Positions 481 through 29,721 of a DNA stretch of 30,537 bases are shown here, piece after piece. Both the position numbers and the translations under genes were made by a program. The stretch covers positions 1-30,537 of the IMG/VR virus record IMGVR_UViG_3300005290_000045. One strand, given 5' to 3'. The stretch comes from a virus. Positions within the stretch are counted from its first letter, which is position 1. Each line of letters begins with the position of its first letter. The notes under the pieces are model-generated. The model was not told the origin of the DNA. It worked only from the letters and a program-made list of their open reading frames with translations, and made no database searches.

Positions 481-624
481 TCATTCCAGTGGTGGCAGGC
501 CAGCGTCACGCACCTTCTGCCGTTCCTGCTCTGCACGCCGTGCCTTCTGGTGGCCAGCTGACACCACGGACAGCAGCAGCGCCGCTGCCACTATCAGGAC
601 GCAGGCAATCAGCAGCACGGTCAT
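481..624 (-). CDS. Small single-pass membrane protein
   Basis: The ORF is 47 codons and starts at an ATG whose ATGA overlaps the stop of the upstream cupin gene, which suggests translational coupling. Residues 2-22 are a strongly hydrophobic helix rich in Leu, Val, Ile and Ala. The rest is a charged helix rich in Arg, Gln, Glu and Lys, ending GLPPLE. The arrangement of N-terminal membrane anchor and cytoplasmic coiled tail resembles phage spanin- or Rz-like and other small inner-membrane proteins, but no specific family is recognisable. Coupling and codon usage support it being real. Confidence 0.65.
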   Translation of the reverse strand: MTVLLIACVLIVAAALLLSVVSAGHQKARRAEQERQKVRDAGLPPLE

Positions 625-1040
625 TCACACGCTGGGTGGAACGTCCACGGCTGCAGGTATGGACCCACCATGAACAGGGTCCAGCAGTCTGGCGTCAGCA
701 GTTCAATACGGTGCTGGTCATCTGCCGTGAACACGTTCACGCTTCCAGGTTCATAGTCACGCACGGTGCTGACACCAGCCGTGCAGCGGTGTTCACGGTA
801 TGCGCCAGCCAGTATCAGAGACAGACCCCATGCCCATGGATGGGAATGCACTTCACCATCAGGGTCTGATGCCAGGAAGTGGTGTAGGTACATAGTGGAC
901 TTGGCCTGCTTGGTCAGCGGGTTCCAGCCGATAATGAAGTAGCGCAGCAGGTATGGCTTCCCTTGTGGCTGGATCTGCTGGGCGAATGTCTGCTTGGTGA
1001 TGCCTTCACACCAGCGCCGCATGTCCTGGTCATTCACCAT
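621..1040 (-). CDS. Cupin-fold protein
   Basis: The product is 139 residues from the ATG at 1040, which overlaps the HNH gene stop by 11 bases. The centre carries a cupin-like metal site: HH at 53-54, then H65-S-H67-P-W69 (pattern HxHPW), followed by the strand residues LSLILAGAYREH, and a later conserved His at 110. Small cupins of this HxHPW type are frequent phage accessory proteins of unknown role. It is not a TET/JBP-like dioxygenase by motif, since no HxD pair is visible. It is coupled downstream to the small membrane protein. The fold call is fairly firm, the substrate unknown. Confidence 0.65.
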   Translation of the reverse strand: MVNDQDMRRWCEGITKQTFAQQIQPQGKPYLLRYFIIGWNPLTKQAKSTMYLHHFLASDPDGEVHSHPWAWGLSLILAGAYREHRCTAGVSTVRDYEPGSVNVFTADDQHRIELLTPDCWTLFMVGPYLQPWTFHPACE

Positions 1041-1374
1041 GTCCCTGTTCTCTCTGTGTCTTCTCTGTGTGATGCACCTTGCACAGACCCTGCAGGTTAT
1101 GCCGTGACCAGAACAGCAGCGGGTCACCGTGGTGCGGCGTGATGTGGTCCACGTCCACCGCTGCGGTCACTCTGCCTGCTGCACGGCAGTCCACGCACAG
1201 TGGCTGGTCACGCAGTACCTGTGACCGCAGACCCCATACCGGATGACGCCAGCGTGCAATGCGGTACCACGCACGCCACGGCTGCAGCTGGTCCCGTGTC
1301 TGGTCATGCGCAGCGCACGGTCCAAGGACTGGGCATCCTGGGGCACGGCACGGTGGCAGTGGTGCGCTGGGCAT
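1030..1374 (-). CDS. HNH endonuclease
   Basis: This is a 114-residue protein. The C-terminal half has a Cys pair (CVDC at 61-64), the HNH core VDVDHI with His 78, the central HNL Asn near 94, and the LCKVHH segment at 98-103 that completes the metal site. It starts at an ATG forming TGATG with the stop of the upstream gene; a GTG at 1377 is an alternative. Small HNH proteins in HK97-type phages often stimulate terminase cleavage at cos, but those usually lie beside the terminase. Here it is far from the terminase at 25.5-29.4 kb, so packaging is only one possibility and a nicking or restriction role is another. Confidence 0.85.
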   Translation of the reverse strand: MPSAPLPPCRAPGCPVLGPCAAHDQTRDQLQPWRAWYRIARWRHPVWGLRSQVLRDQPLCVDCRAAGRVTAAVDVDHITPHHGDPLLFWSRHNLQGLCKVHHTEKTQREQGHGE

Positions 1375-25324: not shown

Positions 25325-25507
25325 TCAGCGGGAAGGCGACTTTAAGGTTCTAAAGTCCAAAGCAGAGCGGACCAGCGCAGGCAGAGACTGCTTCTGCTGC
25401 AGTGCCTGCCGTGCCAGTGCGTCATACCTGCGTGACGGCAGCCGGATGGTGACGCACACGCTGCGGTCAGTGGCGTCTATGGGTGGTCTGCCGATGCGCT
25501 TCTTCAT
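25325..25507 (-). CDS. Ribbon-helix-helix protein between terminase and capsid
   Basis: This is a 60-residue protein starting at an ATG (a second ATG one codon upstream) that overlaps the terminase stop. It begins with a basic KKRIGRPPID tail, then the strand SVCVTIRLPSR, helix YDALARQALQQ and helix LPALVRSALDF, the clear RHH (Arc/CopG) pattern. A DNA-binding protein inside the head gene block is unusual; it could regulate late genes or be a genome-associated protein. It is followed by a 28-base gap before the capsid start. Confidence 0.75.
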   Translation of the reverse strand: MKKRIGRPPIDATDRSVCVTIRLPSRRYDALARQALQQKQSLPALVRSALDFRTLKSPSR

Positions 25508-27036
25508 CACGGATGGCTGCCAAAGATGAACGCCTGATATGCCTTTGGCGCTGGTGCGGTCTGCCGTTCCATCCGGTCCACGGCCATGACCAGTGCGGCC
25601 ACCGTGTCTATGCGTGCGGTACTCAGCTTCTTCGATGGCTTGATATTCCCGGCGCTGTCAGTCTCCACGGCCACGTTCCCCACGTGGTGCCGCAGCACCG
25701 GGTGACCGTCATGGTGCAGCGTGCCACCCAGCACGGCACGTTCCACGGACTTGGTGGGTGCGGATAGATTAGCGAATCCCTGACGGATAGGCACGCACGT
25801 GAAGCCGTCCTGGTCCTTCAGCCGCGTCACCAAGTCCGTAGCATTCCACGGGTCATACGCCACATCCTTCACGTCACTGTCTTCTGCCCACGTGTTCAGT
25901 TCCGCACGCACCCGTTCATAGTCCACGATGCTGCCGTCTGTGATGATCAGGTGTCCTTCATCACGCCATTGTTCATACGGCAAACGGTCACGCAGTCCAC
26001 GTTCACGCAGTCTGTCTCCAGGTAGGAAGGCAGCCACACGCACGCTGAAGCCAGTGCCGTCAGCGTCAGGATAGACAGCCACCATGGCGGTGATGTCTGT
26101 GGTGGTGGACAAGTCTAGACCCACGTAGCAGGGACCAGACCACAGACGTGGCCGCTGACGGCAGGCGTCCCACGCTTCCACGGGTATCCAGCGTGATGCC
26201 TGCTCAGTCCACTGATTCAGGTACAGCCTGCGAAAGACGTTTTCCTGTGCAGGTATCTCCTGCGCACGGGCAGCCATGGTGCGCATTTCATCAATACTGC
26301 GGAAGTCACCCAGTGCGGGATTGCAGCTGCGCCAGACCTTTTCACTGCGCCAGTCAGCATCAGCGGCAGCTTCAAAGATGACCGGCAGGAAGGATGGATC
26401 CAGTGCCGGGTTCTGCAGCACGTTCTTCGCGTGTGCGTACAGTTCCCACAGGATGCTGTGACGGTCATAGCCAGCGGTGCTGATGGCAATGACCAGCGGC
26501 TGCGCACGTGCGCCAGTGGATGACGCCAGCACGTCCCACAGTTCACGGCTGGGTGCCGCATGCAGTTCATCGTAGATGACGCGGCTGGCGTTGAAGCCGT
26601 GCTTTGAATAGGCTTCTGCGCTGATGGCTCTGTAGATACTGCCGGACTTGCGGTGGACTATGCGCTTCTGGCTGTCCAGAATTTCACACTGCGCCAGTAG
26701 TTCACTGTCATTCCTGATCATCTGCGCAGCCACATTGAAGACCAGCGCCGCTTGGTCTTTGTCCGCTGCCGCACTGTAGACTTCTGCGCCTGCTTCCTGG
26801 TCGAACAGCAGACCATCCAGCGCCAGTGCTGCGGCAATCTCTGTCTTGCCATTCTTCCTTGGCATCATCAGCAGCATGGTGCGGTACACACGCCTGCCGC
26901 TGCGGTCAGTCTTGAACAGTGGCCGGATGATCTGCTTCTCCTGCCATGGCCGCAGCTGGAAGGACTGGCCAGCGAACGGACCCTTGGTGTGGGTCAGCCT
27001 GTTGATGATGGCGACTTTGCGTTCAGCGTGTGTCAC
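25507..27036 (-). CDS. terL: Terminase large subunit
   Basis: The 509-residue protein has an ATPase domain with Walker A PRKNGKT at 59-65 and Walker B VIYDE at 153-157, followed by a nuclease domain with GLDLST (Asp308) and later acidic residues around DVKDVAYDPWN. The type matches HK97-like Terminase_1. The start is a GTG without a strong ribosome binding site. The enzyme cuts concatemeric DNA and drives packaging through the portal. The small subunit lies about 2 kb upstream, separated by the ParB-like and glycosyltransferase genes. Confidence 0.95.
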   Translation of the reverse strand: MTHAERKVAIINRLTHTKGPFAGQSFQLRPWQEKQIIRPLFKTDRSGRRVYRTMLLMMPRKNGKTEIAAALALDGLLFDQEAGAEVYSAAADKDQAALVFNVAAQMIRNDSELLAQCEILDSQKRIVHRKSGSIYRAISAEAYSKHGFNASRVIYDELHAAPSRELWDVLASSTGARAQPLVIAISTAGYDRHSILWELYAHAKNVLQNPALDPSFLPVIFEAAADADWRSEKVWRSCNPALGDFRSIDEMRTMAARAQEIPAQENVFRRLYLNQWTEQASRWIPVEAWDACRQRPRLWSGPCYVGLDLSTTTDITAMVAVYPDADGTGFSVRVAAFLPGDRLRERGLRDRLPYEQWRDEGHLIITDGSIVDYERVRAELNTWAEDSDVKDVAYDPWNATDLVTRLKDQDGFTCVPIRQGFANLSAPTKSVERAVLGGTLHHDGHPVLRHHVGNVAVETDSAGNIKPSKKLSTARIDTVAALVMAVDRMERQTAPAPKAYQAFIFGSHP

Positions 27037-27090: not shown

Positions 27091-27975
27091 CTACTTTGTC
27101 AGCGCCGTCTTCCGCTTCAGCACCATGCCGTATTCATTGGGTCCGTTAGGCAGCTGCACGCCACGGCGCAGCACCAGCTTCTGCCGGAACTGCCGGTAGT
27201 TCACGTGATGGTGCCAGCGGCCAAAACGCCAGACCAGCCGTGCGCAGTCAGGGTGCAGCTGCACCACCATCTGCGACTTCGGCAGCGTGCCTTCCTGCAG
27301 ATAGAAGTCAGACGTATTGCCACCCATCACCACCTGCGTGCGCACCTTGTCCTGCAGGAAGGCATTGAACAGCACCGTGACCCAGCCTGCCTTCAGCATG
27401 CGCAGTGACAGGTCCGTGTCTTCGTTGTACCTGCCACGCCAGCGGTATGGCACGTCATTCCGTATCAGATTGCAGCTGTAGATCCGTGTGTTCAGCCTGA
27501 AGGGTGGGTGGGCAATCTTGCGTGGTGTCAGTGATTCGTAGTTCGGACCAGCCATGCTGACGTTGGCATACCGCAGGCAGAAGTCTTCCATGGCACGCAG
27601 CGTGGCACCATCCGTGACCCACGCTTTGACGTTCTGGTTCAGTCTGTAGAAGTGGTAGATATTGTCATCCATCACCCAGTGCCACGGCGCACCAGCGGCA
27701 GTGGCGTGGTCCCATGCAAAGTTCCGTGCGGCACCTGGTCCACGTGACTTGCTGTCTCCCAGGTCATCGCAGGTGTCATATCGCTGCTGATACTCAGACG
27801 GCAGCACCAGCAGCCGTGACTGGTCACAGTCCATGGCATACAGGTCACGTTCCTGTTCTTCCACAATCACCTGATACGGCGTGCGCATGGCATCCAGCGC
27901 ACGGATGGTGAGTCTGCGCCGGAAGTCATGCCTACCCTTGCTGACAATGTAGACAGGGAACCGTGGCTGCATCAT
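27091..27975 (-). CDS. TET-associated-type glycosyltransferase (TAGT-like)
   Basis: This encodes about 294 residues (from the ATG at 27975; alternatives are 27972 and TTG 27990). The start FPVYIVSKGR, then VIVEEQERDLY, GAARNFAWDHA, WVMDDNIYHFYR with a DD pair near 108-109 (numbered from the TTG), RIYSCNLIRND, the RGRYNEDTDLSLRML block and GGNTSDFY follow the TET-associated glycosyltransferase family as I recall it. These enzymes attach sugars to hydroxymethylated bases in phage DNA. No TET/JBP dioxygenase or DNA methyltransferase is recognisable in the window. Glycosylation of another target remains possible. Confidence 0.8.
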   Translation of the reverse strand: MMQPRFPVYIVSKGRHDFRRRLTIRALDAMRTPYQVIVEEQERDLYAMDCDQSRLLVLPSEYQQRYDTCDDLGDSKSRGPGAARNFAWDHATAAGAPWHWVMDDNIYHFYRLNQNVKAWVTDGATLRAMEDFCLRYANVSMAGPNYESLTPRKIAHPPFRLNTRIYSCNLIRNDVPYRWRGRYNEDTDLSLRMLKAGWVTVLFNAFLQDKVRTQVVMGGNTSDFYLQEGTLPKSQMVVQLHPDCARLVWRFGRWHHHVNYRQFRQKLVLRRGVQLPNGPNEYGMVLKRKTALTK

Positions 27976-27980
27976 TGGGT

Positions 27981-28175
27981 ATGTCAACAAAGACCAGACG
28001 CGGCACGCATTACCGTGACATCACTGTTGGTCTGACCGCTGCGCAATATGCCTACCTGCAGGCGGAAGCGGTGGCACGCACCACCAGCATTGCGCAGCTG
28101 GTGCGGGAAATACTGACGGAGTACCTGCCACCGCTGATGGACGCACCAGCCACGCCACGACGCCGGGTGCGTTAA
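27981..28175 (+). CDS. Antisense ribbon-helix-helix protein within the late operon
   Basis: This is a 64-residue protein on the plus strand, the only such gene in the minus-strand late block. The content (THYRDITVGLTAAQYAYLQ, then TTSIAQLVREILTEYL and a basic tail) fits the strand-helix-helix of RHH proteins. Its ATG lies five bases from the glycosyltransferase start on the other strand, and its stop TAA shares the palindrome GTTAAC (28171-28176) with the stop of the ParB-like gene. This packing means it reads divergently from the glycosyltransferase and convergently to the ParB gene. A weak ribosome binding site lowers certainty. Confidence 0.65.
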   Translation: MSTKTRRGTHYRDITVGLTAAQYAYLQAEAVARTTSIAQLVREILTEYLPPLMDAPATPRRRVR

Positions 28176-28798
28176 CTGCCAGCGTCTTCCGTGTGGTCAT
28201 AAAAGACCGGCACTGGATGGTTCAGCAGTCCGTCTGCGTCACGTGGCCACCACATACCGTGCGCCTTGTCCGGCAGCGGACCCACCAGCGCACTGAAGGC
28301 ATCAACAGCCGCTTGGTCACGGAAGTGGATGGTCAGCGTGCGGAAGCCATTGGCGTCCGGCTGGCGGAAGTCCGGCATACCGGACCAGTCACCATCAGAC
28401 GTAGTGCCCAGCAGCACTGCTTCTTCCTGCTCGGTGAAGAACGGCTGCAGCGGCAGGTCAGCGTCTGCGTCTGCACGCAGCTGGTCCACGTCCCACTCGG
28501 CCAGTTCCGCTGACCGATTGTCATAGATGGCCAGCGCACGCTTCTGTTCTGCGCTCAGATTGCTACGCCGCACGGCAATGATGGTGCTGCCGTCAGCGTC
28601 CACCACCTGCACCTTCTGCATGCCTGCGGCAGCCGCTGCTTCCACCACGCCGTTCCCTGCCAGGACTTCACCGTGTTCATCAATCACGATGGACCGGGCA
28701 GCACCCACGTCACGCAGTGCGTCCGTCAACATCTCCACATTGCGTGGCGTGCGCTTGCGCCTGTTGGCCGGATCTGGCGTCAGGTCTTCCAGGTTCAT
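28172..28798 (-). CDS. ParB-like nuclease-domain protein
   Basis: The 208-residue protein starts in an ATGA overlap, with GGAAGG upstream. The ParB/sulfiredoxin-like fold shows in VEMLTDALRDVG, IDEHGEVLAGNGVVEAAAAAG (ParB GxxxxGxxR-type loop, here with Val instead of Arg at the usual position) and LSAEQKRALAIYDNRSAELAEWD. The C-terminus (DWSGMPDF then RTLTIHF) is typical of phage-encoded ParB relatives often found with DNA methylases or modification genes. Here it sits next to the glycosyltransferase. Its activity is not known. Confidence 0.75.
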   Translation of the reverse strand: MNLEDLTPDPANRRKRTPRNVEMLTDALRDVGAARSIVIDEHGEVLAGNGVVEAAAAAGMQKVQVVDADGSTIIAVRRSNLSAEQKRALAIYDNRSAELAEWDVDQLRADADADLPLQPFFTEQEEAVLLGTTSDGDWSGMPDFRQPDANGFRTLTIHFRDQAAVDAFSALVGPLPDKAHGMWWPRDADGLLNHPVPVFYDHTEDAGS

Positions 28799-28971
28799 GG
28801 CCGTGCCTTCCGTGCGCACCAGTGCGCCAGTGCTTTGTCAATGGCGTTCCGATAGCCAAAGTCCACCAGGAAGGTGAAGCCTGCACGTTCCAGATAGTTC
28901 ATGGCCAGTGCTTCACGCCATGACACCTGCAGGTTAATCAGTGCGGCTGTCTCCTGCCACTGATACGTCAT
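28795..28971 (-). CDS. Small protein downstream of the small terminase
   Basis: This is a 58-residue protein from an ATG at 28971 in an ATGA overlap with the small terminase. It is mostly helical (TAALINLQVSWREALAM, then FGYRNAIDKALAHWC) and ends with a basic RKARP. It is coupled at both ends. Function unknown. Confidence 0.6.
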   Translation of the reverse strand: MTYQWQETAALINLQVSWREALAMNYLERAGFTFLVDFGYRNAIDKALAHWCARKARP

Positions 28972-29450
28972 AGCAGTCCTGCCCACTTGGACTTCTGCGG
29001 CGCTTCCATCTGCGGCAGCGTGGACATGCGTGACCGGCCACTTGGTGTCAGGCCGAGTTCGGTCCACAGGTGACGGCAGTGGGTCAGCGCACGGTCAGAC
29101 ACCTTCAGGTATGGATTCACGGCAGGCACACCAGTGTGCAGCTTCACCACCATGCCCAGTGTGTGAATGCGGTGCTGCGCTTCCAGATAGCGTGACCACT
29201 GCTGGCACAGCGCAATCAGTGCCCCACGTTCCACGTGGCTGATGATCCCGCAGGTGCGCAGGATAGGCACCACACGTGCCCATTCCGTGATGGCACGGCT
29301 GTCTTCTCGTAGTTCTGGTGGTGGTTCATCAAAGTCCGCAGACACTGGTGGCAGCTGCGGTTCGTCTTTGCGTGGTGCCTTCAGCTTCCCACGCAGCACC
29401 TTCATGCGTGTGGGTGCCGGACGCCTGCCGCTGTTCCAATTACCGGCCAT
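28968..29450 (-). CDS. terS: Terminase small subunit (P27 family)
   Basis: This encodes 160 residues from the ATG at 29450, which overlaps the previous stop by 11 bases; the frame is open further upstream, but the family normally starts with this motif. N-terminal RRPAPTRMKVLRGK, a Pro-rich loop, the helix AITEWARVVPILRTCG, then DxxALIALCQQWSRYLEA-like helices and the C-terminal LGLTPSGRSRM are hallmarks of the P27 small terminase. It recognises the packaging site and hands DNA to the large subunit. Confidence 0.88.
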   Translation of the reverse strand: MAGNWNSGRRPAPTRMKVLRGKLKAPRKDEPQLPPVSADFDEPPPELREDSRAITEWARVVPILRTCGIISHVERGALIALCQQWSRYLEAQHRIHTLGMVVKLHTGVPAVNPYLKVSDRALTHCRHLWTELGLTPSGRSRMSTLPQMEAPQKSKWAGLL

Positions 29451-29721
29451 AGCGTCCACCAGTCCGCACGGCCACCCTGTCCCGTGACTCTGCGCAGGTG
29501 GACCAGTGAACGGCGCTGAAGTCCACCACGCTGACAAAGGTGCCGTCAGTGCGTTCATAGACACGCTGGATCAGCACGGGCAAGGTCAGCGGCACCTTCT
29601 TCCCCTTCAGCGTGGTCACCCATTCCACGTTCTTCCGGCATGTCTCTGCACGGCAAACGCCGTATGCCGGTGGCGTGGAACGGATGACCGCAATGGCGTT
29701 GCAGTCCGTGTCTTCCTTCAT
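29440..29721 (-). CDS. Small zinc-binding protein before the small terminase
   Basis: This 93-residue protein has Cys23-x4-Cys28, then the conserved-looking VEWVTTLKGKKVPLTLP and, near the end, His72-x3-Cys76 (HWSTC). The C/C...H/C arrangement suggests a zinc site. I have seen this pattern (TxxGKxxPL followed by a HxxxC) in phage proteins. It overlaps the small terminase start by 11 bases and is coupled upstream by ATGA. Confidence 0.65.
   Translation of the reverse strand: MKEDTDCNAIAVIRSTPPAYGVCRAETCRKNVEWVTTLKGKKVPLTLPVLIQRVYERTDGTFVSVVDFSAVHWSTCAESRDRVAVRTGGRYGR

What the first reader, a model, noticed from the sequence alone, without database searches (positions are those of the whole stretch)
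27091..27975. DNA-hypermodification-type glycosyltransferase without its usual partners
The protein has the pattern of TET-associated glycosyltransferases (SKGR start, DDN, NEDTDL, GGN). Known systems need a base methyltransferase and a TET-type dioxygenase to make the hydroxylated base. Neither was recognised in the window. Either they lie outside, the host supplies the substrate, or this phage uses a different route. The ParB-like gene next door could be part of the same module.
Basis: partly seen in the sequence, partly recalled or inferred. Interest (0 to 1): 0.8.

Follow-up and report, generated by a model that had tools for sequence, protein, structure and literature searches.

The report
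Phage DNA-glycosyltransferase with unrecognised partner domain
The gene is a genuine member of the TAGT sugar-transferase family that phages use on modified DNA, and its usual partner in this branch is not an oxidising enzyme but a small, so far unnamed domain carried by the neighbouring ParB-like gene, which suggests a different and still uncharacterised way of putting sugars on a phage molecule, most likely its DNA.

Summary
In detail: window 27091-27975 (-) is an intact TAGT glycosyltransferase (Pfam PF20691, 145 bits; all invariant motifs kept), and no TET, C5-methyltransferase or dCMP-hydroxymethylase is in the window. The inference 'missing partners' is only half right. In this branch of TAGTs the lack of TET is the rule (0 of 47 records; positive control rang), and the real partner is a ~65-residue 'W.GMPEF...KTKSIWFP' domain with no Pfam, PHROG or NCBIfam model. 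It lies just upstream of TAGT in 79 of 81 loci, and a TAGT-blind search for it finds TAGT nearby in 112 of 115 hits. In the window it forms the C-terminus of the ParB-like gene 28172-28819 (-). Natural WGMPEF-TAGT and ParB-WGMPEF-TAGT fusions exist. Relatives insert sulfotransferase, FkbM methyltransferase, radical-SAM or second glycosyltransferase genes between the two. TET-dependent TAGTs form a separate branch with the order ParB-TET-TAGT. Best reading: a TET-independent, ParB-guided glycosylation module whose acceptor is probably DNA but unproven. Solitary TAGTs were already known; the partner domain, fusions and cassettes appear new. New variant of a known kind.

The parts
27091..27975 (-). 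TAGT glycosyltransferase (GT-A fold), catalytic motifs intact
   Evidence: PF20691 145 bits; phrog_842; invariant residues; leave-one-out profile 486 bits; fold of a close relative
28172..28819 (-). ParB-like protein whose C-terminal end is the WGMPEF partner domain
   Evidence: phrog_620 ParB E 1.3e-22 and ParB part of phrog_498 DNA methyltransferase E 7.7e-21; PADLOC MTase_II N-terminus E 3.1e-7; C-terminal domain by alignment and profile
28238..28393 (-). WGMPEF partner domain of TAGT (here WSGMPDF...MWWP)
   Evidence: profile built without the window finds only this place in all window frames, i-Evalue 6e-15; upstream of TAGT in 79 of 81 loci; fused to TAGT in other phages
28475..28807 (-). 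ParB-like N-terminal domain, probable DNA-targeting part
   Evidence: phrog_620 residues 5-115; same domain heads ParB-TET-TAGT operons and ParB-WGMPEF-TAGT fusions L114, L237
27976..28171 (.). 196-bp gap between the two genes, covered by a small ribbon-helix-helix-like ORF on the other strand (27981-28175 +); in most relatives the two genes overlap or touch
   Evidence: weak PHROG match only

Best explanation
The two neighbouring genes form one glycosylation module. The WGMPEF domain is a non-catalytic docking subunit that packs on the TAGT enzyme. The ParB-like domain fused to it targets the pair to phage DNA. The TAGT domain (GT-A fold) transfers a sugar from a host nucleotide-sugar to an acceptor, most likely a base in phage DNA shortly before packaging. 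In related phages inserted enzymes then decorate or extend that sugar. Shown by sequence: TAGT identity, the strict WGMPEF-TAGT linkage, natural fusions, absence of the known hydroxylating routes in relatives, tailoring cassettes. Inferred: docking role, targeting role of ParB, DNA as acceptor. Unknown: which atom of which base (or other group) receives the sugar, and how it becomes reactive.
For: TAGT. WGMPEF gene upstream on the same strand in 79 of 81 loci, 76 of them within 14 nt of the TAGT match; of the other two, L023 has too little upstream sequence and L027 is fused to a second TAGT-like domain. TAGT-blind scan for DNA encoding WxGMPEF: of 115 domain hits, 82 directly before TAGT, 8 in the same ORF, 20 with TAGT 0.6-1.2 kb on (a few are second weak hits in one ORF), 2 (L155, L187) with TAGT directly upstream, 3 near contig ends. 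Triple fusions ParB-WGMPEF-TAGT in two unrelated contigs. AlphaFold2: the domain alone pTM 0.53, in a natural fusion the whole is pLDDT 91.8, pTM 0.89 with the WGMPEF blocks at 90-98. Invariant residues of the domain are W, M, P, F only, fitting packing rather than catalysis. ParB also heads ParB-TET-TAGT operons and DNA methyltransferases (phrog_498). The module sits between terminase genes in the window and before terminase in many relatives. Tailoring genes between WGMPEF and TAGT: FkbM methyltransferase, Sulfotransfer_3 (2), Gly_transf_sug, Radical_SAM (2), Methyltransf_23; nucleotide-sugar genes in L187. Best-studied homologue (T6 TAGT) acts on DNA (PMC13216743).
Against: No enzyme that would create a hydroxyl on a base was found in the clade: TET 0/47, 2OG-FeII_Oxy_3 0/51, dCMP-hydroxymethylase-type only in large T4-like, Kuja-like and one other record, C5-MTase 3/53. 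The complete 233-kb genome of Aeh1 has the fused WGMPEF-TAGT but no TET, C5-MTase or clear hydroxymethylase (PMC2993671 also reports no gene 42). PMC2993671 says T4 relatives lacking the modification genes probably carry no major modification, on restriction sensitivity of some of them. Half of the relatives have no ParB next to TAGT. In the window a 196-bp gap separates the genes. Tailoring of the sugar would fit a glycoprotein just as well.
Confidence: 0.58

Rival explanations
1. The acceptor is not DNA: the module glycosylates a virion or host protein (or another polymer), with WGMPEF and ParB serving as substrate adaptor.
For: No base-hydroxylating enzyme in the clade; sugar-tailoring cassettes; closest solved folds include the collagen hydroxylysine galactosyltransferase COLGALT1 and the wall teichoic acid enzyme TarP (weak, TM about 0.3-0.4).
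Against: The family's characterised members act on DNA (PMC13216743); ParB domains recur with TET and DNA methyltransferases; fold matches are to GT-A enzymes in general and do not tell the acceptor.
Confidence: 0.22
2. It is a conventional hydroxymethyl-base glycosyltransferase whose hydroxylated base is supplied by the host or by a phage gene outside the contig or not yet recognised.
For: The window may be incomplete; T6, PTm1 and Kuja do have thymidylate-synthase-superfamily genes that could make a hydroxylated pyrimidine.
Against: Absence is repeated in 46 other records including long ones and the complete Aeh1 genome; no conserved third gene follows the module around; TET-linked TAGTs are a separate, distant branch.
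Confidence: 0.15
3. The window copy is a decaying passenger gene with no present function.
For: Inserted small ORF separates the two genes, and the WGMPEF domain of the window is among the more divergent (28% to L061).
Against: Intact frame and every invariant catalytic residue; shortest end branch in the tree (0.048); GC like neighbours.
Confidence: 0.05

Closest known systems
T2/T6 beta-1,6-glucosyl-alpha-glucose transferase (T6 TAGT, PF20691)
   Same: Same Pfam family and GT-A fold; made without TET
   Different: T6 uses hmC from dCMP-hydroxymethylase plus alpha-GT; no WGMPEF or ParB; T6 TAGT scores only 39 bits to PF20691 and lies on a very long branch
TET-dependent TAGT systems of mycobacteriophage-type phages (order ParB-TET-TAGT-PIG-L; L277, L274, L271)
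   Same: ParB-like gene heads the module; TAGT family
   Different: They have a TET gene directly before TAGT and no WGMPEF; here the WGMPEF domain stands where TET stands
Solitary TAGTs counted in RefSeq/GenBank phages (288 of 753, PMC13216743) and the Aeh1 glucosyltransferase flagged by Iyer et al. 2013 as acting on an unknown base (cited in PMC8056088)
   Same: Almost certainly include this branch; the Aeh1 protein is a WGMPEF-TAGT fusion
   Different: In the papers read here, neither the partner domain nor the ParB link nor the tailoring cassettes is described (Iyer 2013 and Pyle 2024 could not be read)
Rac-type prophages of E. coli (ynaK ParB + TAGT before terminase)
   Same: ParB gene overlapping a TAGT gene, ahead of terminase; in 1572 of 5426 E. 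coli genomes, 885 with at least 80% of the pair
   Different: TAGT only 24% identical, no WGMPEF seen; MG1655 keeps only the first 86 residues of ynaK and has lost the TAGT

Membership tests
TAGT (PF20691) | Profile match above the curated cut-off over the whole domain | tested here: met
   145.1 bits against 27.5, positions 1-204 of 205
TAGT (PF20691) | GT-A fold with conserved DDN and NED motifs | tested here: met
   Residues invariant in 58 relatives; model of a relative (L189) matches GT-A enzymes and TAGT models
TAGT (PF20691) | Transfers a sugar to a modified base in DNA | not testable with these tools
   Needs biochemistry
TET-dependent DNA hypermodification system | TET/JBP dioxygenase gene with TAGT | tested here: not met
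   0 of 47 records incl. window; Nigel control rings at 4e-8
TET-dependent DNA hypermodification system | C5-cytosine methyltransferase | tested here: not met
   None in window; 3 of 53 records
T-even type hmC glucosylation | dCMP-hydroxymethylase (thymidylate synthase superfamily) | tested here: not met
   None in window; T6 control rings
ParB/Srx-fold phage DNA-modification companions | ParB-like N-terminal domain | tested here: met
   phrog_620 E 1.3e-22; no Pfam match at E 0.1
WGMPEF-TAGT branch | WGMPEF domain encoded next to TAGT | tested here: met
   Leave-one-out profile i-Evalue 6e-15; 79 of 81 loci

The most novel reading that the evidence does not exclude
WGMPEF-TAGT glycosylates DNA without any prior hydroxylation (for example directly on an exocyclic amine), at sites chosen by the ParB part, and in relatives the sugar is then sulfated, methylated or extended: a new chemical class of sparse, sequence-directed DNA glycans.
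Probability: 0.18. Interest if true: 0.92.

Novelty: new variant of a known kind. Interest (0 to 1): 0.62.

Why it matters
It turns the open question of what the many solitary TAGTs do into a defined two-part system with an identified partner domain, natural fusions to express, and easy laboratory material (Aeh1, Rac-type prophages). If the acceptor is DNA, phages have a route to sugar-coated DNA that needs none of the known hydroxylating steps; if it is not, a widely used annotation (beta-glucosyl-HMC-alpha-glucosyltransferase) is wrong for this whole branch.

Tried and rejected
Cupin 'cysteine dioxygenase-like' gene at 621-1127 (-) as an alternative hydroxylase: found in the window only, 1 of 51 records. 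Other 2OG oxygenases (PF13640): 0 of 51. ParB as the constant partner: only about half of the loci have it; the constant part is WGMPEF. Fold of the WGMPEF domain alone: no meaningful PDB match. PDB sequence search with the TAGT profile: nothing. YdaY of E. coli K-12 as a TAGT remnant: no similarity. Iyer 2013 is not held in the library and Pyle 2024 turned up only as a citation, so prior mention of this domain there cannot be excluded.

Full report
OBSERVATION. The window is a 30.5-kb linear virus contig of a temperate tailed phage: integrase-like gene, recombination genes, terminase, portal, capsid. The reported gene is real. Frame 27091-27990 (-), with the start at 27975 favoured by relatives, matches Pfam TAGT with 145 bits over the full domain and keeps every residue that is invariant among 58 relatives, including the DDN, NED and GGN motifs.

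MISSING PARTNERS. No TET/JBP, C5-methyltransferase, dCMP-hydroxymethylase-type enzyme or 2OG-FeII oxygenase of the PF13640 type was found in the window. The same holds for its closest relatives: TET 0 of 47 records, with Mycobacterium phage Nigel ringing as positive control and T6 ringing for the hydroxymethylase. Most records are fragments, but the complete 233-kb Aeh1 genome gives the same picture, apart from a true thymidylate synthase and one weak partial hit. Petrov et al. (PMC2993671) also list Aeh1 and 65 as lacking genes 42 and 56. So lack of TET is a property of the branch, not an accident of this contig.

THE REAL PARTNER. Clustering all ORFs within 6 kb of TAGT in 80 IMG/VR relatives plus the window shows one companion only: the gene directly upstream, present in 79 of 81 loci. 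What is constant in it is a C-terminal ~65-residue stretch, W.GMPEF....F.N.EDV..F..L..Q..T.KTK.IWFP. In 41 loci it is a stand-alone small protein; in 38 it has a long N-terminus, usually ParB-like. It usually overlaps the TAGT start by 2-14 nt, or touches it. It has no Pfam, PHROG or NCBIfam model. A search that knows nothing of TAGT, a DNA pattern for WxGMPEF over IMG/VR, gives 115 domain hits: 90 directly before or fused to TAGT, 20 with TAGT 0.6-1.2 kb downstream, 2 with TAGT directly upstream (L155, L187), and 3 at or near contig ends. Some of these contigs are the same as in the first set, and a few hits are second weak hits in one ORF, so the counts are not all independent. Even the two distant relatives that first seemed to lack it (L253, L255) have divergent versions.

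FUSIONS. WGMPEF is fused to the N-terminus of TAGT in Vibrio phages 1.076.O and 1.124.O, Aeh1, Kuja (twice), PTm1 and several metagenomic contigs. ParB-WGMPEF-TAGT triple fusions occur in L114 and L237. These join exactly the parts that the window keeps as two genes. AlphaFold2 gives the WGMPEF domain alone only pTM 0.53, but a natural fusion (L189) pLDDT 91.8 and pTM 0.89 with high confidence through most of the WGMPEF part. I read this as tight docking; contacts themselves were not available. The only invariant residues of the domain are W, M, P and F, so it is unlikely to be an enzyme.

TAILORING. In about twenty loci a gene is inserted between WGMPEF and TAGT. These include FkbM and other methyltransferases, two sulfotransferases, two radical-SAM enzymes, sugar-binding DXD glycosyltransferases and a second TAGT-like protein. 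L187 adds UDP-glucose dehydrogenase, epimerase and cytidylyltransferase genes. The product is therefore a sugar that is often decorated or extended. The window itself has none of these next to the module and would rely on host nucleotide-sugars (inference).

WHY DNA IS THE LIKELIEST ACCEPTOR. T6 TAGT acts on phage DNA (PMC13216743). ParB-like domains recur with DNA-modifying enzymes: the window protein matches the ParB part of a phage DNA methyltransferase family and of a PADLOC type II methyltransferase. ParB also stands at the head of ParB-TET-TAGT operons. The module lies among packaging genes in the window and before terminase in Rac-type prophages and many relatives. Against this stands the missing hydroxylation step. 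A sparse, site-directed modification would reconcile targeting by ParB with DNA that looks unmodified to restriction enzymes, but that is speculation.

RELATION TO KNOWN TAGTs. A tree separates WGMPEF-linked TAGTs (one compact set holding the window), TET-linked TAGTs (100/98) and T6 on long branches; the E. coli Rac TAGT is too divergent to place. Thus the window is a TAGT, but fails the tested features of both characterised TAGT systems: no TET or methyltransferase, and no hmC synthesis. Solitary TAGTs have been counted (288 of 753 phages, PMC13216743), and Aeh1's enzyme was flagged as acting on an unknown base (PMC8056088, citing Iyer 2013). The partner domain, fusions and cassettes were not found in the papers I could read; Iyer 2013 and Pyle 2024 were not available.

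E. COLI LINK. The Rac-type pair ynaK (ParB) and TAGT is present in 1572 of 5426 complete E. coli genomes at least in part, 885 covering at least 80% of the pair. In MG1655 ynaK is truncated to its first 86 residues and the TAGT is gone. This gives convenient laboratory material.

VERDICT. Observation confirmed; interpretation partly supported. New variant of a known kind; the acceptor is the open question.

Noticed in passing
window 621-1127 (-): Cupin-type 'cysteine dioxygenase' (phrog_4786), next to an HNH nuclease gene; found in no TAGT relative searched.
   Followed up: yes
window 27981-28175 (+) and 25325-25510 (-): Two small ribbon-helix-helix-like ORFs: one inside the gap between ParB-WGMPEF and TAGT, one between terminase and capsid.
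   Followed up: partly
window ends (1 and 30537): HNH (1030-1377) normally neighbours the small terminase subunit (28968-29564), so the two contig ends may adjoin in a circularly permuted genome.
   Followed up: no
L058:7352-8866, L025:1269-2759, L116, L154: A second, distant TAGT-like glycosyltransferase (start IYIPTV.R, DDD motif) is fused to ParB-WGMPEF or inserted before TAGT.
   Followed up: partly
L281 (E. coli MG1655 Rac, ynaK): ynaK of K-12 is a remnant of an intact ParB+TAGT pair that many E. coli Rac-type prophages still carry.
   Followed up: partly
L090:626-1744: The TET/JBP gene of Mycobacterium phage Nigel falls in a PHROG named queuine tRNA-ribosyltransferase, probably a wrong name.
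   Followed up: no
L277, L274, L271: TET-linked TAGTs are followed by a PIG-L type de-N-acetylase gene, suggesting an N-acetylated sugar that is then deacetylated (Pfam tested in L277, the others read by eye).
   Followed up: partly
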